Assembly (NCBI GenBank): GCA_002049455.2
Contig: KV918971.1
Location: forward strand, 1 to 64,000
Source of the DNA: Porphyra umbilicalis
Taxonomy: Eukaryota; Rhodophyta; Bangiophyceae; Bangiales; Bangiaceae
Direction: 5' to 3'
Length of the DNA stretch: 64,000 bases
Below are positions 9,885 to 28,801 of the stretch, piece after piece. Positions within the stretch are counted from its first letter, which is position 1, and the number at the start of each line of letters is the position of its first letter. Made by a program: the position numbers and the translations under genes. The notes below the pieces were generated by a model. It saw only the letters and a list, made by a program, of their open reading frames with translations. It was not told the DNA's origin and searched no databases.

Positions 9885-9943
9885 CGGTTATGGTGCTTTT
9901 CTAAAATTTGCAACCTTAGATGTTGTCAACGTTTGCCCAAACC

Positions 9944-10755
9944 TGATATGGCTGTGTCAGACCCCCGCACAGAGGCCAGAAAAGACATGTCTCGTTGCCA
10001 CTTTGACGGAACTCGAGGCTGTCCTGAGTGCAACAATGGTCGATCGAGACCGATTTGCAAAACATGAAGCCATCGGCCGAGTGGGGGCAACGCACGGCGA
10101 GCGCTGGTGGACCTGTACCGGGGTTCCAAGAGCCGCTCTGAAGTGGGGGTCAAACCCGCATGGACGATATTGAATTGACCCCCCAATTCTTACTGGCACC
10201 CCACGAGTGACCCCTCCAGAGCCGCACGCTCTTAGTGCGACATCTGGGAACGGAGAAACGCGATGCTCGGGCCGAAACGGGCATGCAAACCCGCGTGACT
10301 GACAGAGCTTGTTCGGCAGTTACCAAACGGAGTTCTCTCATCCAGAACTCGCACAGGGCACCTCATTGGCTAGCTGTCGTGTTGAGAAAGGAGCTAAGTC
10401 CCTTGGCCCACACACTGCCTTGTTGGCAGTCTCGAGAAGGTGACAAGTTTCACCATCTTCCTTCATGACGGACGACGCGCGTCGCCGTGTGCCTTGCCAC
10501 TCTGCAAAATCAGTCGTCGTCCGGTCGGCCCAAGAGATAAGCAGCGGCAGCAGAGGCGACTGCCCCCCGCCTTGAGCATTCATGCCATCATGCAATCCCC
10601 AGCCGCGGCACCACGACCGCTCAAGTGTGCAGATCGAGCTCGCTGCTGCACGGTGCCCTCTTGTACCCAGCAACGCGCGTCCCGTTCCAACTCCCCGCCC
10701 CCCCCCCCCCCCCTCGTCTGCCCCTGACGGAGTAAGCCGCCACTCCGATCCGCCT
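9944..10755. other. intergenic stretch before ePHD gene
   Basis: No gene is recognised. A C run at 10697-10712 lies just upstream of the next gene. This stretch probably contains its promoter and leader, but no confident promoter element is visible. Confidence 0.3.
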
Positions 10756-11319
10756 ATGGCTCTTCCGATGCGCCATCGGACGAACGTTTGCGGTCTTTGT
10801 CCGCTGGACAGCCGCACGGGCGGCATTCTTTCGTCACCCCTGATGGGACCATACATCATCTCCGGGGCAAGCAGGTGCAGCCCCGTGTGTGTTCACCGTA
10901 TTTGCGCTTTGTGGGCTCCGGAGGTGTATTGCGACCCGTCCACGTCCACGGCCGATGCGCTTCGCAACGTGGATCAGGCGTACCGACGCGGCAGATACCT
11001 GCGTTGCACTGCGTGCAATGCGACGGGTGCTACCATTGGCTGCCAGGTCGCATCATGTCCGAAGGTTCTTCACTTTTTATGTCTACAACGTGGACGGTGT
11101 GCCTTCGTCCAGGCACAGTACGCCGCCTGGTGCAACCGCCACGCCCACACGATGACCGACGCGGCGGACAAGGGCAACCTGTCTGCTGATGAACCGGTCC
11201 AGGAGAACAATGGGGAGGACGGGGAAGATGATGAGGATGGGGGGGATGAAGAGGATGGGGGGCATGGAGAGGATGGGGCGGAGGATGAGGAGGAAGTGCA
11301 TGACGACGCCTCCGACTAG
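10756..11319 (+). CDS. extended PHD (ePHD) zinc-finger protein with acidic tail
   Basis: This is a protein of about 187 residues built from one extended PHD finger (HC5HC2H type) and an acidic C-terminus. The metal ligands appear in the order expected for the family: CGLC near residue 12, VHRICALWAPEV, a CTAC pair, GCQVASC, LHFLC and WCNRH. In characterised proteins such modules bind histone tails or nucleosomes, so a chromatin role is an inference. The last 60 residues are mainly Asp, Glu and Gly in short repeats (EDGxDEEDGG). I chose the ATG at 10756 because the finger starts directly after it; an in-frame ATG at 10582 would add a Pro-rich stretch. Similar stand-alone fingers occur in host chromatin regulators and in some retroelements, so its origin in this repeat-rich region is open. 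No other domain is visible. Confidence 0.7.
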   Translation: MALPMRHRTNVCGLCPLDSRTGGILSSPLMGPYIISGASRCSPVCVHRICALWAPEVYCDPSTSTADALRNVDQAYRRGRYLRCTACNATGATIGCQVASCPKVLHFLCLQRGRCAFVQAQYAAWCNRHAHTMTDAADKGNLSADEPVQENNGEDGEDDEDGGDEEDGGHGEDGAEDEEEVHDDASD

Positions 11320-11373
11320 CTGTTTGGAGGACAGACGAAGGTAGACGGGAGGGACACGTCTGTTTCCGCACAC

Positions 11374-11379
11374 AATAAA
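11374..11379 (+). terminator. possible AATAAA polyadenylation signal
   Basis: AATAAA lies about 55 bases after the stop codon of the ePHD gene, a plausible position for a poly(A) signal. It is not known whether this organism relies on the canonical hexamer. Confidence 0.35.
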
Positions 11380-12473
11380 GAAGGCGCGAAGCGGAAAGAA
11401 CTGCCTCGGGAGCAAGCTTGTGCCACGAAGAGCACGAAAGAAACATGACCCACAACGCGCCGACACGCCCGCCCCACCCGGCGGCCGCATACTCCTCCCA
11501 ACCCCCTGCCGCTCACGACCGCCACGGCGACGGCGCGTTGCGAACGCCCTTTGCCCGCCGCCCAGTTGGCCGGCGCCAGTAACGCCACCGCTGCCGCCGC
11601 CGCCGCTACGGGCGTCGTCGCCGCCGGCCGTCGCCGGGCGCAGCTACCAGTGGCGTGCGCGCCCGCCGCCGCGCCGCCGGCCTTCCCACCGCAGCGTCGC
11701 CACCTCCTCCGCTGCCTTCAACACGTACCCGCCGAAATCTGTGTCGGCTTCGGCGCCAGTGCCTCAAGCCTCCACTGCGTCCGCCTCTGGGGGCGCCTTC
11801 GCCGCCGCGGCGCCGTGGCGGCCGCCGCCGCCGCCGTGGCGGTCGCCGCCGCCGGCGACGCCCCCGCCTCTCAGCGGCGCAGCCACGGTGGCCCTGTGGC
11901 CCGTACACCAGCGGTACGGTGCCGACCAAGTACTGCATGTGGCACGGGGATCGGGCGGTGGCCAGGGCGGCCGCCAGCCCGACGAGCACCTCCCGCCCAC
12001 GTGACCCCCCCCCACCCAAACCCCCCCTGCCCCCCCACCCCTCCCCGCGCCAAGCCACGCATCCAACAGCTCCCGTCAGCCAAAAAATGTCATGGCGTTT
12101 ATCGCGACGGCGGCGGATGCGAGCGAGGCGATTGCATGCCACCCGTCACGGCGTCTGGCACGGTCACGACGCGCTCGGCGGAGAGGTTCGCCTCTCCCGC
12201 CACTGCCTCCTGTCGGTAAGCGGCCGGCAGCCGCAGCCGGTCGGCGAGCCACGTCGGCTCCCCCGCCGGAACAAGCCACGCATAGAGAAATTAGCGGCGG
12301 GGGGAGAGGGCGACGCTGATGACCGCCGCCGACGCTACCGCCGCCGAGGCGAACCGGTGGGTGGTGGGGGTAAGGCCACATGGGGGGGCGACGTGGCCGC
12401 GGCGACGGAGAGGGGTGTTCCCGGCGCCGTGTGTTCCCGGCGCCGCCGTGGCGGTAGCGGATGCGGCGAGCTG
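11380..12473. other. GC-rich stretch, no gene recognised
   Basis: Very GC-rich, with runs of Ala, Arg and Pro codons open in several frames on both strands. No family motif is seen. Short runs of C and G (for example 12005-12045) are frequent. Confidence 0.3.
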
Positions 12474-13050
12474 TCAACCGCCGGCGGCGGGCGTCGCGAT
12501 GGCCTCCGGCCGCGTGTCGTCGGGGCGCGCTCCGACGCTCGCCCCCACCACGTCCAGCGTGGCGGCGGGCAGCCGCGCGGCGGCCATCTTGGCGAAGTCG
12601 AGGAACCGTTGAACGGCCGCCAACCCCTTCCACGGATTCACAGGCTCCCCGCACGGTCGACATCCGCGAGGGCCCCCCCCCCACATCCCCGCCCGCCAAG
12701 AACGCACGTACCTTGCGAACCCCCCGCGTCGACGCCGATGGCAGGAACATGCCGGGCGCCACCGCCAACGTGGAGCGGCGGTACGCCGTCGCCGCACCAG
12801 CCGCGTCGACGCCCCAGCACAACAGCCCGTCCACTTCCGCGTTGGCGGCATGGGCGGCGGCGACGCCGGTCGTCGGGCCACCCCGCCGCCGACGACCGCC
12901 GACGACGGTGGGGGCATGGGGGGCGCCTTGATGACCGCGCCACCGACGCGGTGGTTCGGCACCGAGCGCAGGTGCACGCCGCTGCGTAGTGGCGCCGTCA
13001 TGCCGAGCACGTCGCCGAAAAGAGCAAAAGCGACGCCGCAGCATTTTCCT
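12474..13050 (-). CDS. unidentified coding-like region with one putative intron
   Basis: On the minus strand two segments in different frames join in phase if a 67-base intron (12645-12711, GTACGTGCG...GGGGAG) is removed. The joined peptide reads ...LAVAPGMFLPSAS TRGVRK then PVNPWKGLAAVQRFLDFAKM and ends with EAIATPAAGG followed by TGA at 12474. The composition is less repetitive than in the neighbouring frames, which supports coding. I cannot assign a family, and the 5' end is undetermined because several frames are open above 12900. Part of it may be spurious, since GC-rich sequence here is open in many frames. Confidence 0.3.
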
Positions 13051-13323
13051 GCATGATCGCATCGCCGGACGGTGGCGGCGGCCCGACGTCCGAAAGCCTC
13101 CTCCTGTTCCTCTTATGAGCACCTGCTCATAGTTGCTCGCCCCTCTCCCCCGCGTCTGTGAGAATCACACGGGAAACACTTTTTCTCGAGCGCCGTTGGG
13201 CAGTGTGTGACACACACTTGAGCACAGGTGCGCAGACGGCAGGACCAAGATCTCAATGCATCCCCCACGCTACACCGACACACCCGCTGAAACCCGCCCT
13301 CACCACCCCCGCCACATGACACA

Positions 13324-14136
13324 TCAGCGCATAGCCCGAAGAAAGCGGAGGACGCGCACACGCGTTCCCAATGGAATGGTCCCTCTACATGTCCGCCGAC
13401 TGGTGGACAGCAACACAGCCATGACGTCCTCCGCCGGCGAATCCAGAACCAGCTGCCCCGTGACGTCGTCCTGATCTGCAGCCAGGAAGATCGCTCGCGT
13501 CAGAGCCTCCTGGAGGTGTTGCTCCATACCAACACACGGCACCCGCGCCACTGCCTCCGCCACTTGCGTGGGAGCAAAGAAGCTAAAGCCAGAGATGGCC
13601 TGTCCCACAACTGCTTCTCGTGCCGCAGCGGGCTTGTCACCACCGCTCCCAACTCCGCCGCCGTCCGCCTCATCTTGGACGTCGTCGGCGGCGGCCGCGT
13701 CGTCCGCCCCACCCGAATTCGCCGGACCACTGGTGGCGGGGTCATCTCCACCATGTGCGCCCCAATCACCAGCACGACCCGCCCCTCCGGTAGCAGTGCC
13801 AGCACCCCCCCGCCCTTCAGGACCAACAGTACGTGTTCGGACAGCTGCTCCACCCGGTGGCGCATCCGCATTCGGATGGAAGAGCCTGTGCATGGTAATG
13901 GCAACCCGGCGGCGATGGAGGGTGTCAGCCATCAATTCTTCCTGCTTGATGGCCACTGCAAGCGTCGGTTTTGCCTCTATAGCAGGAGGCACGGAGCGTC
14001 CGGGTGACGCGGGCACGTCACCCCGAGAAGTTGATGATGTGCTCGACGAGGAACCCGCAGTGGGACTCTCCACGACGGAAGCGGTGGCTTCCAGCGCGGA
14101 GGGGGCAGCGGGATGAAGGGAAGCCGCGGGGTCCAT
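13324..14136 (-). CDS. unrecognised protein, shares C-terminal domain with 15958-18322
   Basis: A protein of 270 residues if it starts at the ATG at 14136, which has a good context (GCGCCATGG); an ATG at 14160 adds eight residues. The N-terminal half is low complexity (Ser/Thr, then Gly/Asp/Ala-rich). The last 90 residues are ordinary in composition and run from FSFFAPTQVAEAV through LQEALTRAIFLAADQDDVTG to TRVRVLRFLRAMR at the very C-terminus. The same pattern, FxxFxPxQVxxAxA ... LxxAxxLxAxxxxVxG ... PxGTxxRVLRFLRxMR and stop, ends the gene on the plus strand at 18322. I know no named family with this ending, so I give no function. The two genes lie in opposite orientations about 4 kb apart, consistent with a local inverted duplication followed by divergence. 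Confidence 0.6.
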   Translation of the reverse strand: MDPAASLHPAAPSALEATASVVESPTAGSSSSTSSTSRGDVPASPGRSVPPAIEAKPTLAVAIKQEELMADTLHRRRVAITMHRLFHPNADAPPGGAAVRTRTVGPEGRGGAGTATGGAGRAGDWGAHGGDDPATSGPANSGGADDAAAADDVQDEADGGGVGSGGDKPAAAREAVVGQAISGFSFFAPTQVAEAVARVPCVGMEQHLQEALTRAIFLAADQDDVTGQLVLDSPAEDVMAVLLSTSRRTCRGTIPLGTRVRVLRFLRAMR

Positions 14137-14850
14137 GGCGCAGCTGCAGGAGTGGAACACGGCGCCAGTCTGTCTCTGTCACTGTGCGAACGGGATGCCC
14201 GCCCTCGCAGCGCTGTCCCTTCGCGGCACTCCCATGCAAACAGCCAGCTTTCTTGACTGAAATGGTGGAGCACTGGGCAGGCGCCTCTGCTGTCGCGGCC
14301 AGATCTGCAGTCTGCAGCAATAAAGCGCACCCCGACACGCGCCCCATGTCGGCAGAGGCGCCAGGTGCTGGTCACCGAAAAATGAGCACCCGTTGCGGTC
14401 AATCGCAGTGACACCACTGCACTGTGAACCGATGGTGCAGAAAGCAGACACTGAAGGGGACGTGGAAGAGGGGGAACGGAGGGCCGAATTCAGCCGCGCA
14501 CGATGCGGGGAGATGGTTGCGTGCTGCCTGCAGATCATTCCGTGGCGCCGGATCATCCCATGGCGCCGCAGCGTGCCGACGCGCACCGACACAAGCCGTT
14601 TATCCCGAGGTCAGACATCTGACAGGGGTGTGCGACGACCAATAAGACGTCTTCACGTCGTGGGTCACGCCTGTGCACACGCCTTGTGGACGTTTCTGAG
14701 CACGGGTCACGTGTCGAGACCACCCCTTTGCCACGCAGGGGCCGGGTGCCGCACCTCAGCGGATCCGCATCTCAACGGATCCCTTCTCGGCGCAGAACGG
14801 CCAGGGCAGCAATCAACAGACTCACGCTCGTCTTTTTCACCGCATCTCCC

Positions 14851-15582
14851 ATGTCCTCCAATGCAGAGTCCATGATGCCCCTCGGCGGCAGGCGCCTCGG
14901 CGGTCGCCCCCCCCGTGTTCCTCGCCCATCGCCGAGGTCGCCCTCGTCCCTACTTTCTATTGTTTCGCGTCATAGGCGTCGCCGGCCGGTCGCCCGAGGC
15001 CGAAGCGTGCAACTGTCTATTTGGGATGATGAGGTGGGGGGCCCAGGGGCTTGCGAGCCACTGAGAATTCTGTCTCGGCGTGCGTCTGGCGTAGCGACGG
15101 GCAGTGCCGACGGGTCGGACGCCATAGCGGCTGCAATTATGCAGCGGAAACGACAAACGCACGGCGGAACGCCGTCGCGGCCTGACGACAACGGGGCTCT
15201 TCACGTGCGGACGCGACCGCCGCAGTCGGCGTCAGTCATGGCCACTTTGAAGGCTTTGCAGGCTGTAGCCCGCGCGGACGTTGCGCGCGCCATCGGTGTC
15301 AAGGCCGAAGCAGCCGCTGCAGCGGCGACGCTGAGCAGCAGGACTTCCCCAAGGGTTGTTCGGGCCGTGCTGGCCGCCGACGAGCGCGCTGCCCTCGTCT
15401 TTCGAACGGCTGAGGCCGACGCGGCCAAGGCTGTGGATGATGCAGTGTCTGCAAGTGCGGCTGCTGCGGCTGCAGCAGCGGCAGAAGAAGCTGCAAGTGC
15501 AGCGGCGTCGGCCCCACTTGAGGCGTTATCGGGGAGTTCTTCGTGTGCTCTCGGCTTCTCACCTGTTTCTGACTTTGAGTGA
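14851..15582 (+). CDS. unrecognised Ala-rich protein
   Basis: An open frame of 243 codons from the ATG at 14851 (MSSNAESMMPLGG). An upstream in-frame ATG at 14686 would extend it. The N-terminal part is Arg/Pro/Ser-rich. Residues from about 125 onward are Ala-rich with spaced Arg, Glu, Asp and Lys and could form a helix or coiled coil, followed by a run of Ala and the tail GFSPVSDFE. No domain is recognised. It sits between the two related genes at 13324-14136 and 15958-18322. Because of its low complexity it could be a chance frame. Confidence 0.35.
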   Translation: MSSNAESMMPLGGRRLGGRPPRVPRPSPRSPSSLLSIVSRHRRRRPVARGRSVQLSIWDDEVGGPGACEPLRILSRRASGVATGSADGSDAIAAAIMQRKRQTHGGTPSRPDDNGALHVRTRPPQSASVMATLKALQAVARADVARAIGVKAEAAAAAATLSSRTSPRVVRAVLAADERAALVFRTAEADAAKAVDDAVSASAAAAAAAAAEEAASAAASAPLEALSGSSSCALGFSPVSDFE

Positions 15583-16337
15583 TGTATTCTTTTTGGCGCT
15601 GTGGTGCTGGTGACACACCAGTAGAGACAAAAGGGCTCCTCCATTCACCCCAAGACCTCGTCCCTCCCGTCCCTCCCATACCACCACGGCGGGGAGCTCC
15701 CTGAGCTCGGACGGTAGGCCAAAATACAAATGTTGCAAATCGGCGGACTTGCGCCTTGGAATCGTGCGCCAGTGGGGGTCGTCAAAAACATTTGGAGTGA
15801 GATCCCGATTGCTGGCCCCACGACCTCACCATGTCGCTTGCCGTGTCATTGTGGCTTGCGTTGCCCTGCACAGCGGTGCGTTGTGTTCCTGTTGGGCGCC
15901 AGCGAGAGCCCCCCGCAGCGCGTGCCGCCGTCGTGGCGCGCCGTTGCGACCGAGGTCATGCCCCGTCTGTGCGATGGCTCCAGTGGAGCAGCGGCAGCAG
16001 TGACTGAGTCCCAGCGGGATGGCTCGCGCTATTTATGCGATGAGTGTGCCTCTCGCCCCGTCATCGAGCCAGAAGCGGCACAGACCGGTGCCAGTACGCT
16101 GGGAAAGCGGCAGCCTACGTTTATCGGTGTTGGACCGAGGTCGACGGTCCCGGCTTCGAAGATGAACAAGCGGGCGTTTTTGAGTGGCTCTTACCAGCAA
16201 TGTGACAAGACGGCACCATCCAAGCGCAACGCACCGACTGGGCTTAGCTTCAGCCGGTCGCACGGGCCTCTTTCCGGGACGCGCAGCGTCGGGTCTTCTT
16301 CACGCTCCACGCCGGCGGACGTGGCGGCAAATTCGGG

Positions 16338-17739
16338 CCGTCCCGTGGCGGCGCACGCGGGCGGCGCATTGCGGAGCGCGGCGGAGCAAGTGGCGGCCAC
16401 GATGGGCTGAGGCGCGGCGGCGCTTTTCGTCGGCGCGTCCCTCAACACGGCTGAGGACGGGGTGCTCGCGTCGGGCGGCCTCCCGGCGGCGCACTTGGTG
16501 TGCGCAACGCGCTGTACGACGGACCATGTGGCGGCCGAGATGGGCAGCGCCACGGCAACGCACTTGGTGGGCGCGTTGGGCACTACGGCGGAGCACGCGG
16601 TGCTCGAGTCGGGCAGCGTCGCGGCTGAGCACTTGGTCGGCAAGTTGGGCAACAGGGCGGAGCACGTGGCACCCTTGATGGGCAGCGCCGTGGCGGCGCA
16701 AGCGGTCGGCGCTTTCGGAAACAAGACGGAGCACGCGGAGCTGGAGATGGGGGGCGTGACGGCGGCCCACTTGGTCGGCGCGTCGCGCGATACGATGGAG
16801 CAGACGGTGGCCACGATGGGCGGTGCCACGGCGGCGAATGTGGTGGGCACCTTTGCCATCCCGCCAGATAACACGTTACGCGCGTCGGGCGGTGCCGCGG
16901 CGGCGCACTTGGTCCGCGCGTCGAGCGACACAACGGGGCACGCGGCGGCCGCAATGAGCGGCGCCGCGGCGGCGCACGTGGTCGGCGCGTTGGGGCCCAC
17001 GGCCTAGCACGCGTTGCTCGTGTCGGGCGGCGTCACGGAGGAGTACTTGGTCTGCACGTCGGGCAACGGAAAGGAGCATGTGGCGGCCAGGTTGGCCGGC
17101 GATGCGGATGCGCACGCGGACGGCGCGTTGGGCAACACGGCGGAGCACATGGCCGAGGACATGGTGGCCCGGTCGGGTGGCGCAGCGGCGACGCACGTGG
17201 TCGGCATGTCGGGCAGCACGGCGGAGCACGCGTTGCTCGTGTCGGGCGGCGTCACGGAGGAGTACTTGGTCTGCACGTCGGGCAACGGAAAGGAGCATGT
17301 GGCGGCCAGGTTGGCCGGCGATGCGGATGCGCACGCAGACGGCGCGTTGGGCAACACGGCGGAGCACATGGCCGAGGACATGGTGGCCCGGTCGGGTGGC
17401 GCAGCGGCGACGCACGTGGTCGGCATGTCGGGCAGCACGGCGGAGCACACGGTGGCCAAGATGGGCCGCGCTGCGGATGCGCGCGCGGGTGGCGCGTTGG
17501 GAAGCATGGCGGCGCACGGCGGAGCACGCGGCGGCCAAGATGGGCCGCGCTGGGGATGCGTGCGCGGGCAGTGCGTTGGGCAATACAGCGGAGCATATGG
17601 CGGAGCACACGGTGGCCACGTCTGGTGGCGCTGCGGCGGCGCACTTGGTCGGCGGTCCGCGAAACACGGCGGAGCACGCGACGGTCACGATGGGCGGCGC
17701 TGCGGCGGCGCACGTGGTCGGCACGACGGGCAGCACGGC
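16338..17739 (+). repeat. about 20 tandem units of 69 bp (some 81 bp)
   Basis: The units are degenerate but in register: each encodes 23 residues beginning with G(G/S) and containing AAHxVGAxGxTAEH, alternately ending in Met or Ser. A few units have four extra residues (AEHMAEDMVARS). Unit lengths are multiples of three, apart from a 10-base insertion at about 17505-17514, so the array evolved as coding sequence. Confidence 0.75.
17011..17448 (+). repeat. 219-bp near-perfect tandem duplication
   Basis: Copy 1 (17011-17229) and copy 2 (17230-17448) are identical by eye except one base near 17119 (G) versus 17338 (A). The length equals three protein repeat units (23+23+27 residues), so it is a recent in-frame expansion. 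Confidence 0.85.
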
Positions 17740-18322
17740 GATGAGGGGACCGTCCTTCGAGTCGCGGGAAGGGGCCGCCATTGCACTCTCCCGGCGTGCT
17801 GCTAGTAGTCGGCCTCTTTTTCCGCCCTCTACGTGGTCGCCATCGCGTCCCCCCTCTCCCATTCGTCGCTCACCTGCTGTTATCCCGTTGCCGCGTCGAC
17901 CCAGTGGGGACGCCCCGCCGAAATCAAGCTCCCGTCGCCCTGGCCAACCCGACGTTGCCCCCGGTATTGTCCCCACTCCGCTGCATCGACCTGCCCAGCG
18001 ACCTCCGCCACCATCAAACGAGCAAGACGTCCTCGATGAAGCAATTGACCCCGCCGAGTTTGCAAGCTTTTCTCCCCACCAGGTTGGCGCAGCGCTTGCC
18101 ACCTTTGCGGGCGCCCAACTCTCCCATGTGCGACAGCTTGAGCTCCACAGAGCGTTCACGTTGGGGGCCGTAGAAGGTAATGTTGTCGGCATTGTTGCGG
18201 TGCAGGAGGACATCCATCGCGTTGCGGAGGCGGTAATGACGTTTTACCGCCGCTGTCACGACGGCCGGGTGCCGTATGGCACTGAGTGCCGCGTGTTGCG
18301 CTTTTTGCGCCGCATGCGATAG

Positions 18323-21300
18323 CAAGCGTGCTGCGCGCGTGTCTTTGGTCTCTGAGTCCGTCGACGCTGGGAAGAGTTCTTCGGGTGTGCGCTCATTCTG
18401 TGTTGTAGTCGTCATAGTCATTCTTGTCCATGAAAAAGAAGGAAACTGCTGCGAAGGGAACAGATGCGTGAGAAGTCGCATCATCCCGTCCCGCATTTTG
18501 CAGAGACGGTTGTGATTTATATCACTGTGTGCGCCAGTGCCAGCAGTCGTCGTGCTTCACTTGTCGACGACGCGGCGTCAAAGAGAAGAAACTCTTTGTG
18601 GTTTGGCAGAGACCGACGGTCTCTCGTGACTGCAGGCCGACTGGATCGAGCACCAACGTTTAACTTCCGATTTCTCCCATCGACGAAATGCCACATGGCC
18701 CCCCCCTCCTCCTCCCATTTGTCATGTCACACGCGCAGCGGTGATCGGCGTGGACTGGAACAATTTGACACCCTGCCGAACTTACCTTCCACCGCGAGCC
18801 ACGCCCGATGGGGGGCGACGAGCATTGGCCATTGTGCAAGTCTCTGTGGTCCAGGGTTCAAGACAACAGATGCATTGGGTTTTGTTTCTCCACAAACGGT
18901 GACTGCTTTGGCTGCTTCAAGAGGGCCCGAAATCCGTACGATTTGGTGAGGGGCTACTGTTGATCTCCATTTGAAGAAGCATGCTGACTTGAGGCTGAGT
19001 CGGGGCGTTTTTGCACTTTCTGCTTCCCATGGAGACCCAACGCGTATAAGTTGGTGCCATGTGCAACGTCGGGACGCATGAGGACCCCTCTCGTGTTGAT
19101 GGTGTGCAGAATGACGGAGCATGCGCACCTCCGACGGCAGATCCACACTTCCCAGAACGAATCAGAACCTGTCGGTCCAGTGGGCCCACAGCGCGGTCGG
19201 TGGGAGGCCGTCAGAACGGCATCGACGTGGCACCCTCGTACGTCGCCGTCGATGATCCGCCACCCACCGCCGTCGCGCCGTCCCCTCCCCCTGTCGTCGC
19301 GCCCCCCCCTACATCCCCCACCTCCCCCCACTGCCCCCCTCTGCCCATCGAAGAAACACTTGGCAGTCCATGAGTCACAGCCATAGACGGCGGCTTCGCG
19401 GCCGGGGCGGGCGCGGCGGCCGCGGCCGCTTGAAAGGCGGGCCCTGGCCGGCGGGTGCCCCGTGAACGTCTTCGCCGCTGCGACTGTCATGCGAACGTGC
19501 CGCTCGACGCCGTGGGAGCTGCTGTGTGAGGCGGCCGGCGCGACACGCCAGCGAACGCTATTACCACGAAGGCGGCCGGCCTCGAGTCGTTTGTTCCCCC
19601 CGTGGCCGGCCTCAAGTCGTTTGTTCCCCCCCCAGTGCAGTGTCGGCAGGTTTGCAGGACTAGGGGGACTGTAGTTGCCTGGGGCGTGAGGACTTGGTGA
19701 CAGGAGGAATCCGCGCTCTCGCTTGTCGTTGTTGATGTGCCTATGTTCGTGCTTCTTCCCTGTTACTGTTATTCTCTGCGTGGCAGGTTTTTTTGTACAA
19801 CGTCTTGTCTGTACTATATACAGAAAAAACGCACAGCTCCTGCTTCCAGGCGCCGGTGCTCTCATGTCCCTCCAACAAGTTTGGCACGGCCACCAATTCA
19901 AACAGCGTGGACCCCGCGAAATACAGTTCACCGGCAGCCGAGCATCCCAGCAGCCAACGCGCGCCGCCACGTCCTCCCCCTACACCTCCCTGACCTCATG
20001 AGGCAACACCCCTTCCCGAGAGGGGCGGCGGCACTCGCCTTCTCACTCGCCCAGCCAGTTCTGAGAATCCAGGAGCAGTCGCCGCACCGCATCCTATGCA
20101 CGGCCGCCGCCAACTCCTGCGCTCACCACCCACCCTGCATCGATACAACGACCCTCTTGCCGAAGTTGCCTGGGGACTGCCCCAGCCTCTTCGGATGCAC
20201 CGCAGACTCGCCAGCCGCGCTGTGCGGCTCTGACTCCCCCCTGCCACCACACGGACACCCCGACTCTCTTGCCCAAGTTGCTGGGCGACTGCCGCAGCCT
20301 CCCCGGATGCACCGCCGCCTCGCCGGCCACGCCGCTGTGGCTGTGACTCCCCCCTGCCACCGCACAAACAAGGTGCTTTCGCTCAGCGCCGCTGCCCCCT
20401 TCTTCCCCGACCAAAGAGCATCCTCCACGTGCCGTCCAACGCTTGGGGGGTCGCTGATGCAGCCGCTGGCACTGCCGCAATGCAATCACAGAGTATTGTG
20501 GTCGCCCGCCCTCGACTGGGGTTGGAAACGCTTTCGGCCGCCGGACAAAGGCCGTACAACCCAACGCAGGTAATGTTCATCTGGTCGCAACGCAAGACTC
20601 CCACCGCGGGAAAAGGCACTGTGAATAAATAGGGAGAGGCAATCGCACACCTTTATGAAGAAAACTCGACAGGGACAAAGATGCAAGGACAAGCAGAACG
20701 AGAAATATCCCCTGCGGAAACCGCTGCATCAACGTAGTCGAGAGAGCGCAGTCGAGATGGATGCGTTGCCAAAGTGCCGACAACGTGGAGCACACGAAAG
20801 AGAAGTAAGCAGATCGTACGGGAATACAGACAGAGGGAAGCACAGATGCTCTCAGTGGCCATGCGAGAGGTGTTCATCAACAAGTAGGACAGAGAGAATG
20901 CGCAGATCAACAAACGCACATCGGCAACGAGTGGGAAAGCAACTGTGGGCGAAAGACGCTGCCACTCTCGCGGGCGCGAAGAAGCGCTCATCCGAGTGCC
21001 GTCGAAGACACGGCCGTATTCGGAGGAGCAGGTCTGAGGCGATGATGGGGGACCAGGAGGGGAGGGGACGGGAGCGTGGGCGAGGCGGCGACGGAGATGG
21101 CTGGCGGGATGCAGAGAGACGCCGACATTGATAAGATCGGCGGGGAGAATGAAGTGGTGTGACGGTGGTGGGCGGGCGGGGTGACGACGGCAGGGGCTCG
21201 GGCGACGGCCGTAGGGGGCCGAGCGACCATTGTGCGGGGTGGGGCGACGACGGAGGGTGGCGGCGCGACGACGATGGTGGGCAACGGTGGCGAGACGACG

Positions 21301-22530
21301 ACGGTGGAGGCCGCGGGGGTATCCTTCCAGGTGGTCCTCACCGAGGACGTGTGGTGCAGAATGAGCCCAGACTGAGGACCGAGAGAAGATATTTCGTCGA
21401 CCCACTGCCGCAGGCAATGATGCAGACGATCCGAGTGCATTTTTCATCAGAGCGCAAGCCCACCTGCCCACCTCGACTGAAGCAGACGTTGGGTCAGCTG
21501 AGTTCGACAACCCGCCAATTCCATTTCGATTCGTCCCCACCATCCCATCCGACATGTCACTTGGAAGAGAGCCCCGAGGTTGCATGATGCTCATTCGATG
21601 TGATTGTCGAGGCCGACCACTGACGCCGCGCAGCGCGATGAAAAGGAGGCAAGGGTATCGGGGTGGCGTCGTTCTGGTGAAGTCGACAGCTACGACTCTA
21701 AATAGGAAGAGAAGCGCCGCGCGCCTTCAGAGGGGAGCCAGCTTCGGATGCGGGCTGAGAAGCTGCGTTCTTTGTATTGCTGCGCGTGATTTTGCGACGA
21801 ACTCTACTGCAACGGCTGGAAGACACTGCTCCAACAGATGCTCGTCGCAGAGGGCCGCCTCTGGTACGTCGCGTATTCAAGTTTTCGAAGGTCGCGCGGC
21901 TGCATGTCCCACTGGCATGTCCAACTGGGCCTACGCGTGGCTGACCTGAGAAGGATGCAGTGCTGCAAGTGCCTATGTCCTGCACGAGGTAAAGTTTCGG
22001 ACAGGTACTCGGCTCAGCCGACACACATGGACTCTCTGCCGACCGCCAGCTGTCGCAGACCTCGTGTGACAGAACGCGGCCCGCGCAGCAGGATGGGAGC
22101 TGTTGCTAATCAACTGCCCACGCCACCACCTCCCGCGCCGGCATGTCAACTAGCGCCTACGATACCTTTTCACAGTCAAAAGACGTGCCAGCAGAGGTAC
22201 GGTATCATCGGCGCCCACTGTCGCCCAGAGCAGGGCGAAGCGGCGCACGACAGAGAAAGCAGGCACGAACCACTGCTGCTTCGAAGCATTATCTGGCTCT
22301 GCTCCCCTTTTTCCTTACGCTGCCGTTTCGAGTGCATGGATCAAGCGCGTCACACTGGTTTGGTGGCTGTCAACCATTGCAAGTGCGGATATCATGCACA
22401 CAGACCGGCAGCGCCCCCATGCGTGGTGAAACAATAAAGTCGAATAACACGGGTACTTAGGTACGCCTTAACATAAATATTCGGTCTTGCGATCTGATGT
22501 CGTATCTCAGAGGACGGTCGGGGGCCACCC
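18323..22530. other. gene-poor stretch
   Basis: No recognisable gene in about 4.2 kb. A poly-pyrimidine/Pro-coding block lies at 19260-19340. Two tandem units of about 113 bp lie at 20157-20381. A stretch at 21160-21310 is rich in CGACG-type short repeats and is open on both strands. None of the frames shows a family motif. The segment next to 22440 may hold the promoter of the transposase that follows. Confidence 0.3.
20157..20381. repeat. two tandem copies of an about 113-bp unit
   Basis: The sequence beginning CTTGCCGAAGTTGCCTGGGG (20157) recurs at about 20270 as CTTGCCCAAGTTGCTGGGCG. Both copies run through a shared CTGACTCCCCCCTGCCACC-type end. They differ at roughly one base in seven. 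Confidence 0.5.
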
Positions 22531-23994
22531 TTGCGCTTCTTGCGCAGCGGATCCGCCACCTCCGCCCCCATGTCCCCATTCCTGTTGCCTGAACCACCAC
22601 GGCCTGCCTCACCGTCGGCAAGGCGGCCACCAAGACCGGTACCACGTGCCAGTTCACCGACGGTTCCGCCACCACGGACCTGGTTGCCAACGGACGGGCG
22701 CCCACGCCGCCGTCGTGCTACCGAGACGGCCACCGCGCTTCGTCCCGTGGACGGCGCGGGCACTGCGACAGGCCCCGCGCCCCTTCCTGTCGACGGCGCT
22801 GGCACAGAGACTGCCATCGCGCTCCGTCCCGTGGACGGCGCGGGCGCTGAGACGGCCCCCGCGCTCCTTCCCGTCGACGGCGCTGGCACAGAGACGGGCA
22901 CCGCGATCTCTCTCCTGTTGAAGGCGACGGCTCCGCCGCGGCCACGGCGTGCCTGTCCCACGACGGCCATGTTCTCTGAACAGCAACGGCTCCACGCGCT
23001 GCACCTTTGCGAAGAGGGGTACTTGGTGGACGAGGTGGCCGTCATCATTGGCTGCTCAACGCACTCGATTGACCGCTGGCGGCGCGCACTGGCCGCTACG
23101 GGCTCCGTGTGGCAGGACCCTGAGATGAAGAACTCGCACGCTGACGCGGCCTTGCGCAACGACAACCTTGTGCGGGCTGTGAAGTTGCTGGTGGAGTCGG
23201 AGCCTGTTGCATTTTTGCGCGACCACGTGGACTTGTTGGTCACTCTAAGCACCTACTACCCCGAGGTGGACCACCGCTACGTCAGCTCCGCCACCGTCTA
23301 CCGCGTCTTGCGCCATCTCGGATACACTCGCAAACGGGTCGAGCGTCTTTTCCTCGAGCGCTCAGATCAAGAGCAACGCGAGTTCGCCGTCATGATCAAT
23401 CAGATCCCGCTCCGCTGCCTCGTCAGTGTCGACGAGACGCATACTGACGGCGGCGACGTGTACCGGAAGTTCGGCCGGACATTGCGAGGTGACCGGTGCG
23501 AGCTGCTGGACCACGACCCGCGGACCGTGCCAAGGACAAGCACGGTGATGGCTGTCTCCATGACGCAGGGAGTAGTGTGGTCCCAGACCGTCGTGCTGGG
23601 CCCGGCGCAGACGTCGGACGACTGGCGCCTATTTTTGCAATGCCTCGACACGAGGATGAACAAGTATGTACCTGGATTGCCCTGGGCTTTGCAGCCCGAC
23701 GCCTGCGTCGTCTTGTACGACAATGCAGGCATTCACGATGAGGCGGGCGATGCCTTTATGCAAGAGAACGGCATCCACCACGTCCGCCTACCTCCTTACT
23801 CCCCCAACTTGATGCCCGTTGAGGGAGTGTTCGCTGAGCTCAAGAAGCACGTGCAAGATCTCTTCTACGCCAACGCGCAGTACTTGGAAAAGCCCATGCA
23901 GCTGTTGGCGGCAGCCGTGGGGCGCTTGACTCTGCGGCAGATTTCCGGCCAGTTCCAGCGCATGGCAGAAATGGTGGCCGAGTTGCTGCTTTGA
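22531..23994 (+). CDS. IS630/Tc1-mariner-type DDE transposase, intact frame
   Basis: A 487-codon uninterrupted frame. The conserved protein starts near residue 147 (ATG 22969) with a helix-turn-helix: EQQRLHALHLCEEGYLVDEV, then IIGCSTHSIDRWRRAL. The catalytic core follows as VSVDETHTDGGD (first Asp), VVLYDNAGIHD (second Asp) and LPPYSPNLMPVEGVFAELKK (Glu). I count 33 residues between the last Asp and the Glu, close to the Tc1/mariner DD34E layout. This arrangement is typical of the DDE_3 endonuclease fold that moves DNA elements. The N-terminal 146 residues are Pro/Arg-rich and contain four in-frame copies of a 14-15 residue unit, PVDGAGTET; whether translation begins at 22531 or 22969 is uncertain. 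No terminal inverted repeats were found by eye near 22440-22530 or 24000-24260. All catalytic residues are present, so it may be active. Confidence 0.85.
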   Translation: MRFLRSGSATSAPMSPFLLPEPPRPASPSARRPPRPVPRASSPTVPPPRTWLPTDGRPRRRRATETATALRPVDGAGTATGPAPLPVDGAGTETAIALRPVDGAGAETAPALLPVDGAGTETGTAISLLLKATAPPRPRRACPTTAMFSEQQRLHALHLCEEGYLVDEVAVIIGCSTHSIDRWRRALAATGSVWQDPEMKNSHADAALRNDNLVRAVKLLVESEPVAFLRDHVDLLVTLSTYYPEVDHRYVSSATVYRVLRHLGYTRKRVERLFLERSDQEQREFAVMINQIPLRCLVSVDETHTDGGDVYRKFGRTLRGDRCELLDHDPRTVPRTSTVMAVSMTQGVVWSQTVVLGPAQTSDDWRLFLQCLDTRMNKYVPGLPWALQPDACVVLYDNAGIHDEAGDAFMQENGIHHVRLPPYSPNLMPVEGVFAELKKHVQDLFYANAQYLEKPMQLLAAAVGRLTLRQISGQFQRMAEMVAELLL

Positions 23995-24265
23995 TTCTCC
24001 GAGTGCTTGCTGGCCGGTGTGCTTTTGCTCGGCCGCCGGAGGGCAACGTGTCTTTCTTTCGTGCGTACTTACCGCCTTCTTCTTGTTTCCGACCCTGTCT
24101 CTCGCGCGCTGTCCCTTTCCCGGTCAAACGGACAGGTGAACGGCCAGCCACTGCACTCGAATGCCACCTACCCCACCACATCGACCCGCAACACGCATCA
24201 TGCCACAACCACCACCACGACGCCCCGCTCTTCTGCGCAGCGCAAGAGCGATAACACTGGCGTCG

Positions 24266-25470
24266 CAGCGCCGCCGCGACGGCCACTGCCGCCGACGAAT
24301 GCGCAGCGCAGGCGCCGTCCCTCCGCCGCCGACACGCGACGCCAACGACGTTGGAGTCCCCGCGCCGCCGCGACGGCCATTGCCGCCGACGAGTGCGCCC
24401 GCCGGCGTCATCCCGCCGCCGCCTACTCGCGGCGCCGAGGACGTTGGCGTCCCCGCGCCGCCGCGGTGGCGATTGCCGCCGACAAAGGCACACCGCCGGC
24501 GCCGCCCCGCCGCCGCCGACGCGCGACGCTGAGGACGTTGGCGTCCCCGTGCTGCCCCGACGGCCATTGCCGCCGACGAGTGCGCACCGCCGGCGACGTC
24601 CCGCCGCCGCCGACGCGCGACGCTGAGGACGTTGGCGTCCCCGCGCCGCCCCGACGGCCATTGCCGCCGACAAATGCACGCCGCCGGCGTCGCTCCGCCG
24701 CCGCCGTCGCGCGGCGCCGAGGACGTTGGCGTCCCCGCGCCGCCCCGACGCCCATTGCCGCCGACAAATGCACGGCGCCGCCGTCGCTCCGCCGCCGCCG
24801 TCGCGCGTCGCCGAGGATGTTGGCGTCCCCGCGCCGCCGCGACGGCCATTGCTACAAACGAGTCCGCACAGTCGGCGCCGTCCCGCCGCCGCCGACGCGC
24901 GACGCTGAGGACGTTGGCGTCCCCGCGCCGCCACGACGGCGATTGCCGCCGACGAGTGCGCACGGCCGGCGCCGCCCCGCCGCCGCCAACGCGCGGTACC
25001 GAGGACGTTGGCGTCCCCGTGCCGCCGCGACGGCCATTGCCGCCGACGAGTGCGAACCGCCGGCGCCGTCCCGCCGCCGCCGACGCGCGACGCCAATGAC
25101 GTTGGCGTCCCCGCACCGCCCCGACGGCCATTGCCGCCGACGAGTGCGAATCGCCGGCGCCGTCCCGCCGCCGCCAACACGCGACGCCAATGACGTTGGC
25201 GTCCCCGCGCCGAGGCGACGGCCATTGCCGCCGACGCGTGCGCACCGCCGCGCCGTCCCGCCGCCGCCGACACGCGACGCCAACGACGTTGGAGTCCCCG
25301 CGCCGCCGCGACGGCCATTCTCGCCGACGAGTGCGCCCGCCGGCGCCGTCCCGCCGCCGCCTACTCGCGGCGCCGAGGAAGTTGGCGCCCCCGCGCCGCC
25401 GCGAAGGCCACTGCCGTCGACGAGTGCGCACCGCCGGCGCCGTCCCGCCGCCGCCGACGCGCGGTGAGCA
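24266..25470. repeat. GC-rich minisatellite, about 13 units of about 94 bp
   Basis: A motif around CGGCCATTGCCGCCGACGA recurs at intervals of 89 to 96 bases from 24276 to about 25403. The intervening text alternates CGCCGGCG blocks with GACGTTGGCGTCCCCGCG. The unit is generally not a multiple of three, yet long frames stay open on both strands because the units lack stops in every frame; I regard those frames as chance. It begins about 270 bases after the transposase stop codon. Confidence 0.8.
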
Positions 25471-25843
25471 TTCCCGGTTTTGCAACACGCCCAGCGCCAC
25501 TCACATGACCTTTTTGTCACTTTTTGGTCACTGTGGGCACCACCAGGAGAGGTTGGGCACTGTGGCATCAAGTGTGGGGCACGGATAAAAAGATAAAGGC
25601 TTCCAGCACACGATGTCCCGGTTGCGAGTTCAATCTGTGCGCGCAAAGACAGGGAGGGTGGCCTCAAAACTACAGCAATGACGTCTTGCAGAGCCGCCCG
25701 ACTCTACCCGACACGCATACCACCGCCCCGCGAAACACTACCACACTACACACAACCTCATACGCCCACCACCACCCTACACACCACCTCACAGGCATGT
25801 GCACAACCGCATACGCATGTGACGACTATAATCGACACCCGAA

Positions 25844-27535
25844 TCACGTGTCCGACGTGCCGCGCACAGGTGCTGACGCACTATCATCGGTGGTGTCTAC
25901 TGTAGTAGCTGCGGCCCCACCGGCACACACTTGCAAGGGGTCGACATCCATGACGACCGACCCGTGTGCGCGTGCGGCGGCGGCAGCTGGCTGCGTCTCG
26001 CCAGAGGCGGAGCTGAGCCGCGACTGCTGCTGGGCAGTGGGGGAGGCTGCCAACTTGCTCTTGCGTTGTACGAGCGTCTCCACGGCGAGGGCAACGCTGG
26101 AGAGCAACGCCGGCCGCCAGGTCGGGGGCATACCAGAACAGAGCCATTCCGCGACTTGGGCCGCCGACAAAGTGCCTGAAATGAGGGAGTAGCCCCTGAC
26201 GTGTGTCGCCAGGGCCCCCTTAATGAGAGCAGACGCCAGTTTTGGGTCTGCATCTGCGACAGGGCAGTGGCACATCTGTTCAATAACAAGGTGTGCCACA
26301 CGGAGCGGCGTGCTGCTGCCAAAGGCCTTGTCGTAGAAAAACGGCATCTCGGCCGAGAAAGCCCCCCGCGTGCCGGTCGGCCACAGGCTGTCGGGGTTGA
26401 CGGTGACTGTCGCGTTCTCGGGAAGCGGGTAGACTGTCGACTGCCCGGGTTTCTGCGCCTTCGCCTTGCCCTTTCCCTTGGTGCTGCGCTGCGGCGACTT
26501 CGCCGGCGACTTGCCCTTGCTGATGGCGGCGGCGTAGAGGCCCATGCGACCGCCCGGCGGGCCGCGCTGCCCCTTGCGGCTGCCTCTGCCACTGTGCTGT
26601 TTCGCCACGGCGCTGTTCCGGTCCTCGTTGTCTGTGGACTCGTCCTCCGTGGCGCAGTCATCGTCACCGCCGTCGACGTCGCTCTCAACGGCGTTGGCGG
26701 CGCGGCGGTTCGCCTCCACAGCGCCTTCGTCGCAATTCTCAACCAGAGCGTCAAACGCCACCTTGTTGCTGCCGTGGAGCACGGACGCCTAGCTGCCATT
26801 GGACTGCAGCAGCTTGATCGACTCGCCCAGGCCGACGCCCGCAGCGCACGTGTTCGCCCGCAGCCGCGACACATTGCGCCGCCGTTCGGCACCCATCTCG
26901 GAAGCGGCCGCCGAGACGCTCTGCGTGTTGTCAACGAGGTTCTTGACCGTTTCGTCCTTCATCATTACGCAGACAAAGTCCGACTCATCCAGGTCACGCT
27001 TGCACGTCTTGCGGAGTAGACGCCCATCCTTCAGCTGCCACCGGTCCAGAGCATACGTCTGGGTGCCGTACTGGTGCCCCGTCAGACCGCACACGCCGCA
27101 GAGCTTGAGGTGGATGCACTTCGCGTCACCACACTGGCCCTTCTTGTGGAAGGGGTGATCCGCGGGCAAGCTGTGTCGGCAGAGCGTTTGGCGTAGAGGG
27201 CAGGTGCGCGCCGTGTGACCGCTCCCGTCCGGCGGCGCCACGTAGTGGCAAATGCCACACATCCCCATGTTGGGATGGGTGGGGATGGCGGCAGCGCTGA
27301 GCGGGGAGAGGTAGAAAAGACGACACAAGCCACGCAGACGCCACCTGTGGAAGGCCAGGAGGTCGTGAGTACTCTGCCATGCCTGAATTGGGGCAATCAA
27401 CGGACGCGGCAGAGTGGCGAGGCGCGCCACAGCAACTAGGCAGCCGCGTCCTCCCGTCAAAGCCATCAAGGGTGGCCCACGTGGCCCTGTGCTGCTCTCC
27501 ATAGCGGCATCTCCCCCACACCCCCCACAGAACAA
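25844..27535 (-). pseudogene. zinc-knuckle-like protein gene with one in-frame TAG
   Basis: Read on the minus strand, one frame is open from 27535 to 25844 except for a TAG at 26789-26791, giving about 248 plus 314 residues. The first half has closely spaced Cys/His: CGICHYVAPPDGSGHTARTC, then CRH, HFHKKGQCGDAKC-like spacing and CGVCGLTGHQY, which resembles zinc-binding knuckles. The part after the TAG is acidic (ESDVDGGDDD), then Lys-rich, then ordinary in composition (MPFFYDKAFG, RVAHLVIEQMCHCPV, VAEWLCSGMPPTWRPALLSSVALAVETLV). I do not recognise the family; a transposon-encoded nucleic-acid-binding protein is one possibility. No simple GT-AG intron removes the TAG while keeping the frame. 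The true start may be the ATG near 27270 (MGMCGICHY) instead of 27535. Confidence 0.45.
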
Positions 27536-28291
27536 TCATGAGTGCCCCACAGCGCCTCAACTCCCCCCCACCAAGCGCGCGGAGAGCACCGATGCGCCAC
27601 GCCGCACAGCCCCAGGATACATCTTCGCGGCGGGTGATTGCAAAAGAGGCCCGACCAAAGTGGCAAACGATGGCAAGGCGACACGCCGTGGGGCGCATCC
27701 AGCCACTCATTCGCAGGTACCGCTACAAAAGAGAAGGCGGTGGGGTGGCAAAAACAACGTCACAGAGCAAACTTTACCTGAAGAGACGGTACGGGGCCTC
27801 ACATGGCCCGCATGAATCCATTGCCGCAGCGGGAGTAATGCAGTGTTTTCCGGTGGCAAAAGCGGAGCCGCGCTGGCCGCCATCGTACCCGCAGGGCGTC
27901 AAGTGAAAGATGCGGAAGAGGGCAGAAAACCGGAAGGGCGATCACTGCCGATTTGGAGAGCAGCCGCCGATGGCCGTAGAGGGCGCCCAGGGGAGCTTCC
28001 AGGAGGTGGGCGCCGAGGGGATGCCGTTCGTGTTGAAAGAGGAACGCCGCGGACCGGTGTGGAGACCGGGGGGGAGGGATCCCACCACGCGGTGTGCTGC
28101 CAGGAGCATTGTGGGCGTGTGGGCGCGCCTGTTGCGCCAAAACTGGGCTTTGATGATACCCGTGCCGCTGACAGAGAAGCATGCGGTGAGACCAGGGAGA
28201 GAGAATGAAATCGTCGGTGATCATGGATTTTCATTGGCCCTCGGACTCCCCCAGCTCTTGTGAGGCACTCGGGATTTAGTGGTCCACTTCG
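27536..28291. other. intergenic stretch, no gene recognised
   Basis: Short frames on both strands without motifs. It separates the zinc-knuckle gene from the right-hand inverted repeat. Nothing else is visible. Confidence 0.3.
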
Positions 28292-28401
28292 GGTTTGGGC
28301 AAACGTTGACAACATCTAAGGTTGCAAATTTTAGAAAAGCACCATAGATCCACTGTGGATATAACCGGGACGGATTCAACCGAACAATGACTGTACATAG
28401 T

Positions 28402-28704
28402 TCGATTTCCATGGCCCGAACAAATGAAGGGCTTCTTCGTCTAAAAAGTGGTGTTACGTCGGACTGCATGAGCTTAATGGGACACGTTGTGCAACGTGGC
28501 TTGAATATGGCGATAGCATCTCATTGTTATCATTGCTCCAAGAGAATGCTCTAAGAGAATGCTCTTAGAGCAATGTTAACAATGAGATGCTATTGCCATA
28601 TTCAAGCCACGTTGCACAACGTGTCCCATTGAGCCCCTGAAGTCCGACGTAACACCACTTTTTAGACGAAGAAGCCCTTTTTTTGTTCGGGCCATGGAAA
28701 TCGA
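28402..28704. mobile_element. 303-bp foldback (MITE-like) element
   Basis: The sequence is a near-perfect inverted repeat: the left arm starts TCGATTTCCATGGCCCGAAC and the right arm ends with its complement, GGGCCATGGAAATCGA. The arms are about 135 bases with roughly ten mismatches, centred near 28553 on a short spacer (AGAATGCTCTAAGAGAATG). It interrupts the host repeat; the left copy at 9203-9230 lacks it. A clean target duplication was not seen. The transcript would fold into a long hairpin. Confidence 0.75.
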
Positions 28705-28801
28705 CCTACCTACTTGATTCTGGCTTCCGCTGACCAAGAATAGCTGTGCGGCTATCGCTTTTCTATTTCGAGTCAGAATAGCTTTTAGGATAGCCGAGGC
28801 T

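What the first reader, a model, noticed from the sequence alone, without database searches (positions are those of the whole stretch)
13324..18322. Two neighbouring genes share an unrecognised C-terminal domain ending in RVLRFLRxMR
The minus-strand gene ending at 13324 and the plus-strand gene ending at 18322 have unrelated-looking, low-complexity N-termini. Both finish with about 88 residues of the same pattern (FxxFxPxQVxxAxA, LxxAxxLxAxxxxVxG, PxGTxxRVLRFLRxMR) directly before the stop. Strict conservation of the very end suggests a functional C-terminal module. I know no named family with this signature, so it may be a lineage-specific, undescribed family.
Basis: partly seen in the sequence, partly recalled or inferred. 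Interest (0 to 1): 0.75.

Follow-up and report, generated by a model that had tools for sequence, protein, structure and literature searches.

The report
Paired proteins of a giant transposon
The two neighbouring genes with the same unrecognised protein ending belong to an 18.5-kilobase jumping element of the Tc1/mariner type, a class that is usually small and carries one gene, and the shared ending is probably how two of the element's helper proteins stick together.

Summary
The shared C-terminal segment is real: 87 residues, 36% identical, far above shuffled controls. It matches no Pfam, NCBIfam or PDB family consistently. Both genes lie inside an 18,458-bp DNA transposon (window 9889-28346) with 63-bp inverted ends. 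The element encodes an intact DDE_3 (IS630/Tc1/mariner) transposase and duplicated TA on insertion: its flanks joined with one TA match 38 empty repeat copies. The order ePHD, A, alpha, B, transposase, zinc-knuckle recurs elsewhere, and ten TIR-bounded elements of 12-30 kb were found. A and B look like paralogues older than the family's spread; both C-termini are under purifying selection, as the transposase is. B has a GATA zinc finger above cut-off in two of six pieces scanned; A has a SUMO-type motif in 8 of 10 copies. The likeliest role is an interaction module that joins two transposition or chromatin helper proteins. A SAM-domain resemblance was tested and not established.

The parts
9889..28346 (.). 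Giant Tc1/mariner-type transposon, 18,458 bp including the TA at each end
   Evidence: inverted ends, collinear copies, empty site
9889..9951 (+). Left terminal inverted repeat, 63 bp, begins TA-TGGTGCTTTTCTA; the TA is the duplicated target
   Evidence: 95% complementary to the right end; empty-site match
28284..28346 (-). Right terminal inverted repeat, ends in the second TA
10582..11319 (+). ORF with an extended PHD-like zinc-binding domain (ePHD)
   Evidence: PF13771 E 1.2e-13, 51.5 bits against cut-off 29.1; 40 genome matches, itself included
13324..14136 (-). Protein A, 270 aa from the first ATG (the mechanical ORF runs on to 14160 from a GTG); the start is not proven, since the C95 copy lacks this Met
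13327..13587 (-). Shared C-terminal domain of protein A
   Evidence: dN/dS 0.07-0.21 against six other copies
13939..13950 (-). SUMO-type motif (psi-K-x-E, IKQE) just before the conserved RRR segment of protein A
   Evidence: at least one such motif in 8 of 10 A proteins, two in 4 of 10; the SUMO reading is recalled knowledge, not tested
14686..15582 (+). Alanine-rich ORF of unknown role ('alpha'), between A and B in the collinear copies
   Evidence: 17 genome matches; weak constraint, dN/dS 0.29-0.84
15958..16410 (+). N-terminal part of protein B: degenerate Cys-finger-like start where some relatives have a GATA zinc finger; the frame ends at a stop in this copy
16382..17740 (+). Repeat region (69-bp/23-codon period) that encodes B's linker; interrupted here
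17078..18322 (+). ORF named in the finding; only its later part is in the B reading frame
18059..18319 (+). Shared C-terminal domain of protein B
   Evidence: dN/dS 0.09-0.31 against five other copies, undefined for a sixth
22969..23994 (+). Transposase, 341 aa from this ATG, HTH + DDE_3; catalytic D, D, E codons at 23431, 23719, 23821 (95 and 33 residues between)
   Evidence: PF13358 E 9.8e-12, PF13384 E 1.5e-7; spacing; 116 genome matches, a lower bound
24258..25463 (.). 94-bp tandem array, 12.9 copies, inside the element
25844..27535 (-). Cys/His-rich zinc-knuckle-like gene (ZK; the name is mine, by eye), split into two ORFs of one frame by a stop in this copy
   Evidence: ORFs 26789-27535 and 25844-26782; 150 genome matches, a lower bound; no Pfam family above cut-off

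Best explanation
SHOWN: the two genes are accessory genes A and B of an 18.5-kb DNA transposon that has a Tc1/mariner-type transposase, ~60-bp inverted ends and a TA target duplication. The transposon is one of a family of giant, multi-gene elements in this genome. The C-terminal ~87 residues of A and B are homologous and have been kept by purifying selection, while the linkers drifted. INFERRED: the C-terminal module is a protein-protein interaction domain through which A and B bind each other (and perhaps host proteins with the same module). In this picture B brings DNA binding (GATA-type finger), A brings a basic/SUMO-type segment, and the ePHD protein reads chromatin. Together they would form an accessory complex that helps the element choose sites, assemble its distant ends or escape silencing. 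I put the location and class of the element at about 0.97, selection on the module at 0.9, and the A-B interaction role at about 0.45.
For: Inverted ends enclosing the genes. DDE_3 transposase with an open frame and DDE residues. The window element's flanks joined with one TA match 38 places that run through the junction at 88-94% identity, 37 of them without net length change; the other 2 of the 40 top places are the window's own flanks. Four were fetched and read, 93.5-94.0%. TA stands at 15 of 17 ends found, though the search pattern itself began with TA and allowed only two mismatches. The same order and strands (ePHD+, A-, alpha+, B+, transposase+, ZK-) occur at C211, C70, C95 and C38, at C20 without the transposase, and inverted at C205 with an extra domain copy. 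Ten loci have TIR pairs enclosing these genes. 21 of 26 domain matches lie in clusters with other element genes. C44 and C3 copies are 99.7% identical over 683 bp up to the TIR, with no alignment beyond it. Selection: dN/dS 0.05-0.21 (A), 0.09-0.31 (B), 0.06-0.23 (transposase) over the pairs computed. The nine B rows form one clade, 93/86. GATA finger in B of C151 (3.6e-11) and C117 (2e-6). The module sits after ankyrin repeats in two host-like ORFs, a usual place for interaction domains (recalled).
Against: The alpha ORF, at the same place, shows little constraint (0.29-0.84), so not every element ORF is clearly maintained. In the window copy itself B is broken and ZK has a stop, so this copy alone may not make the complex. 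Of six B pieces scanned from the finger region, only two pass the GATA cut-off, and one of those (C117) is not in a confirmed element cluster. Two of ten A proteins lack the KxE motif. A is one clade in only 41% of bootstrap trees. C70's joined flanks gave no empty site.
Confidence: 0.6

Rival explanations
1. A and B are passenger host genes captured by the transposon, with a host function (for example transcriptional regulators) and no role in transposition.
For: The module also occurs in host-like ankyrin ORFs (C188, C253) and in ORFs at C61 and C275. Giant transposons elsewhere carry cargo (PMC6431247 and PMC10175614, passages). The C3/C44-type elements have no copy of the module that the searches detected, so the transposase can do without it.
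Against: A and B occur together in the same order across diverged copies (dS up to about 2) and are constrained as strongly as the transposase. A passenger would be expected to decay in at least some lineages while the transposase is kept.
Confidence: 0.25
2. The module is a divergent SAM (sterile alpha motif) domain, a polymerising/dimerising fold.
For: By eye the order P-x-x-V ... I-x-G ... E-D-(V/L) ... G-x-R ... F-L resembles SAM. The profile comparison aligns exactly the IxG region, and its score of 13.85 lies above the 95% point of shuffles (9.76) and above the reversed control (8.91). Attachment to ankyrin repeats is common for SAM (recalled).
Against: HHalign probability is only 0.84%, E 0.066, over 20 columns, and the best of 100 shuffles reached 14.08 (the SAM profile had just seven sequences, three of them partial). 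SAM is among the Pfam hits of 0 of 25 members and absent from the PDB profile search.
Confidence: 0.3
3. The repeated loci are segmental duplications of a host gene cluster, not transposition.
For: C70 and C95 are 98.3% identical over 16.8 kb; C95 has no left end in the searches and carries a partial internal duplication.
Against: A TA empty site exists for the window copy. The C44/C3 copies have no similarity beyond the TIR. The transposase is inside.
Confidence: 0.03
4. The unit is an endogenous virus that borrowed a Tc1/mariner transposase as integrase.
For: Size and gene number; mariner elements with extra genes are known inside algal viruses (PMC3627910, passages).
Against: None of the ten ORFs scanned against Pfam hit a viral capsid, packaging or polymerase family (PHROGs was not searched). 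The two IMG/VR matches to the module are chance hits inside what reads as a DNA polymerase.
Confidence: 0.04

Closest known systems
IS630/Tc1/mariner superfamily
   Same: DDE_3 catalytic domain with HTH, inverted ends, TA target duplication
   Different: 18.5 kb with about six genes. PMC12242761 (passages) states that Tc1/mariner elements typically encode only their transposase; the full-length elements of one family (HvSm) in PMC7325037 are 1.7-2.8 kb (passages)
Oxytricha TBE elements (ciliate Tc1/mariner with accessory genes)
   Different: TBEs are flanked by ANT, not TA; their sequences were not compared with the genes here
[quoted passage not shown]
   Same: Mariner transposase with extra genes; Mariner-type TA duplication (PMC3627910, passages)
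   Different: Extra genes are endonuclease, methyltransferase or Fanzor; no Pfam hit of such a kind among the ORFs scanned here
Giant En/Spm elements of red algae (Chondrus, and a Bostrychia report)
   Same: 16-20 kb, 4-5 ORFs, in a red alga (PMC6431247 passages; PMC12477816 passages)
   Different: Different transposase class; the element here has DDE_3 and a TA duplication. The Bostrychia paper is not held and the Chondrus report (Repbase Reports) was not seen
SAM domain
   Same: Small C-terminal module with an IxG turn, found after ankyrin repeats (by eye; helical character is my reading of the sequence)
   Different: No significant profile similarity

Membership tests
IS630/Tc1/mariner transposon | DDE/D transposase of the DDE_3 type | tested here: met
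   PF13358 45.4 bits against cut-off 28.6; triad present, 95 and 33 residues between
IS630/Tc1/mariner transposon | Terminal inverted repeats | tested here: met
   63 bp, 95%; same kind of ends on other copies
IS630/Tc1/mariner transposon | TA target site duplication | tested here: met
   38 empty-site places for the window copy, four read; TA at 15 of 17 ends, with a pattern that favoured TA; C70 gave no empty site; C20 was not searched
IS630/Tc1/mariner transposon | Place of the transposase in a phylogeny of the superfamily | not tested
   No reference set of eukaryotic transposases was at hand; weak PDB matches to SETMAR (E 0.013) and Sleeping Beauty (E 0.11) only
Giant En/Spm (CACTA) element | En/Spm-type transposase | tested here: not met
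   No such Pfam hit in the ten element ORFs scanned; DDE_3 found instead
SAM domain | Sequence-profile similarity | tested here: not met
   HHalign probability 0.84%, score above the 95% point but below the maximum of 100 shuffles; SAM in the Pfam hits of 0 of 25 members
SAM domain | Five-helix fold | not testable with these tools
GATA-type zinc finger protein (protein B) | GATA zinc finger | tested here: inconclusive
   Met in C151 (42.9 bits) and C117 (27.7 bits) against cut-off 26.8; below it in C38 (14.0); no GATA hit in the C205, C20 and window pieces; the C70, C95 and C155 pieces scanned do not reach the finger region or gave no hit

The most novel reading that the evidence does not exclude
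A lineage of giant Tc1/mariner transposons (12-30 kb) evolved a multi-protein accessory system: two paralogous adaptors that pair through a new C-terminal domain shared with host ankyrin proteins, coupling a GATA-type DNA-binding protein and a SUMO-targeted protein to an ePHD chromatin reader, so that a transposase normally limited to small elements can move or place very large ones.
Probability: 0.3. Interest if true: 0.8.

Novelty: new variant of a known kind. Interest (0 to 1): 0.62.

Why it matters
Tc1/mariner is among the best-studied and most used transposon superfamilies, and it is thought of as a one-gene system with poor tolerance of length (recalled). A constrained six-gene, 12-30 kb lineage would show how a cut-and-paste transposase can be fitted with accessory proteins. 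It would give a defined, testable set (A, B, ePHD, ZK) and a protein module that no library searched here describes. For the genome in question it explains a family of repeated 'unknown' genes as parts of one mobile system.

Tried and rejected
Named families for the module: Pfam, NCBIfam (25 aligned members) and a PDB profile search gave only scattered weak hits; the best were DUF6403, E 0.0037, and IniB_NTERM, E 0.0039, each in 2 of 25 members. Member L018 (C224) was left out of that alignment because of a stop, so 25 of 26 were used. SAM: not claimed. Prokaryote genomes: 221 stretches matched a pattern, none encodes a relative. Empty site for C70: none; C20's flanks were printed but not searched. 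Rfam on the window: 0 matches. B linker as ankyrin: weak Ank_4 hits below cut-off (E about 0.002) in the C70 and C95 repeats, not followed up. Papers: ten searches, read as listings that were often cut (for example 10 of 532, 12 of 130), showed no giant multi-gene Tc1/mariner element in a red alga. The library lacks most subscription journals, so this is no proof of absence.
Full report
Observation. The frame ending at 13324 (minus) and the frame ending at 18322 (plus) share 87 C-terminal residues at 36% identity, directly before the stop; the score is 117 against a maximum of 61 in 5000 shuffles. Pfam lists nothing for either protein at E up to 10. Scans of 25 aligned genome members against Pfam and NCBIfam give no consistent family, and a profile search of the PDB gives none. 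The plus-strand ORF's N-terminal half is, however, an out-of-frame reading of a 69-bp repeat. The frame with the finger-like start at 15958 has stops at 16408 and 17005 and then changes, so B is broken here; the C70 and C95 copies are open for 894 codons.

What surrounds it. Searching the window's own genome (83.8 Mb, 665 contigs) with the B module gave 26 matches at E up to 10, several as A/B pairs about 5-6 kb apart. Comparing these loci showed blocks of homology and a 63-bp inverted repeat at window 9889-9951 and 28284-28346. A pattern made from the end, with up to two mismatches, found 17 ends in the genome and 0 in the reversed control. A second, more general pattern with one mismatch found 38, five of them the same sites, again with 0 in the control. 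The window interval is 18,458 bp.

Transposase. The ORF at 22969-23994 matches DDE_3 (9.8e-12) and HTH_23 (1.5e-7), has D, D and E with 95 and 33 residues between, and has no stop inside. The PDB relatives are SETMAR and Sleeping Beauty, weakly. The genome holds 116 matches, itself included and a lower bound, from 100% down to 39% identity.

Target site. Both ends of C211, C70 and C20 begin with TA, and 15 of 17 ends do; the pattern began with TA, so this count is biased towards it. The firmer test is the empty site. Joining the window element's flanks with one TA gave a sequence that matches 38 other places through the junction at 88-94% identity, 37 without net length change. The match reaches about 50 bases past the TA on the right, where the repeat seems to end. 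Four places were fetched and read; they have GGTTATATCC where the joined site has GGTTAGATCC. The element therefore inserted into a repeat and duplicated TA, as Tc1/mariner elements do. The same test on C70 found no match through the junction.

Gene set. Besides A and B the element has an ePHD ORF (PF13771, 1.2e-13), an alanine-rich ORF and a Cys/His-rich gene without a family above cut-off. From the match lists a script clustered places (only part of the transposase, ZK and alpha lists was entered). The order ePHD+, A-, alpha+, B+, transposase+, ZK- stands at C211, C70, C95 and C38, at C20 without transposase, and at C205 inverted with one more domain copy. C151 and C155 have a rearranged order. 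C137 and C268 keep module, transposase and ZK. 29 further contigs have two or more of transposase, ZK, ePHD and alpha within one cluster, without the module. TIR pairs enclose these genes at ten loci: C211, C70, C20, C38 and C3, C44, C16, C100, C152, C1, 12.3 to 29.7 kb long. The interiors of the last six were not read, so nested insertions there are not excluded. C3 and C44 are 99.7% identical for 683 bp up to the TIR and do not align after it, which shows movement.

Selection and history. Nei-Gojobori dN/dS, for pairs that include the window copy or end in C205, is 0.05-0.21 for the A module, 0.09-0.31 for the B module, 0.06-0.23 for the transposase, 0.11-0.26 for ePHD, 0.10-0.38 for ZK and 0.29-0.84 for alpha. 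Pairs share ancestry, several dS values are above 1 and one is undefined, so these are descriptive. On the tree the nine B rows form one group (93/86). The eleven A rows need two changes and are one group in 41% of bootstrap trees; long-branch warnings apply. The simplest reading is that A and B split before the elements spread. 21 of 26 module matches sit in element clusters. Others include an ankyrin-repeat ORF at C188 (Pfam), an ankyrin-like one at C253 (by eye), and ORFs at C61 and C275, which suggests that the module also serves in host proteins. Which direction it moved is not known. Pattern-based scans of prokaryote genomes and viral contigs found no credible relative.

Other parts of A and B. 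A proteins share a segment psi-K-x-E ... R-R-R upstream of the module (about 120 residues before it in the window's A). 8 of 10 have at least one psi-K-x-E, 4 of 10 have two, ten residues apart, and 2 of 10 have none. B has a GATA finger above Pfam's cut-off in C151 and C117, below it in C38, and none detected in the C205, C20 and window pieces. C117 is not in a confirmed element cluster. The linkers are low-complexity and differ freely.

Mechanism. Shown: mobile element, its class, its gene set, constraint on the module. Inferred: the module joins A and B (and perhaps host partners), making a helper complex with DNA-binding, SUMO-type and chromatin-reading parts. The inference rests on the module's repeated use at the C-terminus of otherwise different proteins, on the A/B pairing across copies, and on its presence after ankyrin repeats. 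Against it, C3/C44-type elements seem to manage without the module. A SAM-like fold was my first guess by eye; profile comparison did not establish it (probability 0.84%, score 13.85; shuffles: 95% point 9.76, maximum 14.08 of 100), and no structure could be computed.

Known work. All papers were seen as passages. PMC12242761 says Tc1/mariner elements typically encode only a transposase, with ciliate TBEs as an exception carrying two accessory proteins. PMC3627910 describes three-gene Mariner elements in algal viruses. PMC6431247 mentions 16-20 kb En/Spm elements with 4-5 ORFs in the red alga Chondrus, and has no occurrence of 'mariner' or 'Tc1'. PMC12477816 lists giant KDZ, EnSpm and Sola-1 elements in Ectocarpus and cites giant EnSpm elements in red algae. 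PMC7325037 places some red-algal elements in the maT group. Ten searches showed no report of a giant multi-gene Tc1/mariner element in red algae in the listings given. I therefore call it a new variant of a known kind; the protein module is an undescribed family as far as these libraries show.

Noticed in passing
window 28393-28713: A 160-bp near-perfect palindrome (91% arms, 1 nt apart) stands just outside the right end of the element; it may be a separate small element.
   Followed up: no
G000:C38 around 115023: Two large elements seem to abut: the left flank of the C38 element reads like an inverted end itself (AGCACCA-TA-TGGTGC), and ePHD and ZK matches of a neighbour lie just upstream.
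   Followed up: partly
G000:C95 135604-145308: An internal partial duplication gives this copy a second transposase.
   Followed up: partly
G000:C20 232328-244657: A copy with both ends but without the transposase region, so presumably moved in trans.
   Followed up: partly
G000:C24, C87, C147, C297, C50 (3.2-5.0 kb TIR pairs): Short TIR-bounded derivatives with the same kind of ends.
   Followed up: no
L062 (C188), L058 (C253), L059 (C61), L060 (C275): Host-like ORFs, two with ankyrin-type repeats, that end in or near the same module.
   Followed up: partly
G000, many contigs: The zinc-knuckle-like protein has 150 matches, and some elements (such as C3, C44, C18) hold two unlike copies, which suggests a second paralogue pair besides A/B (57 of 150 places entered).
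   Followed up: no
L002, L004 (B linker of C70, C95): The 23-residue linker repeat of B gives a weak ankyrin (Ank_4) hit below cut-off, E about 0.002; with ankyrin repeats before the module in host ORFs, B's linker may be a decayed ankyrin array.
   Followed up: no
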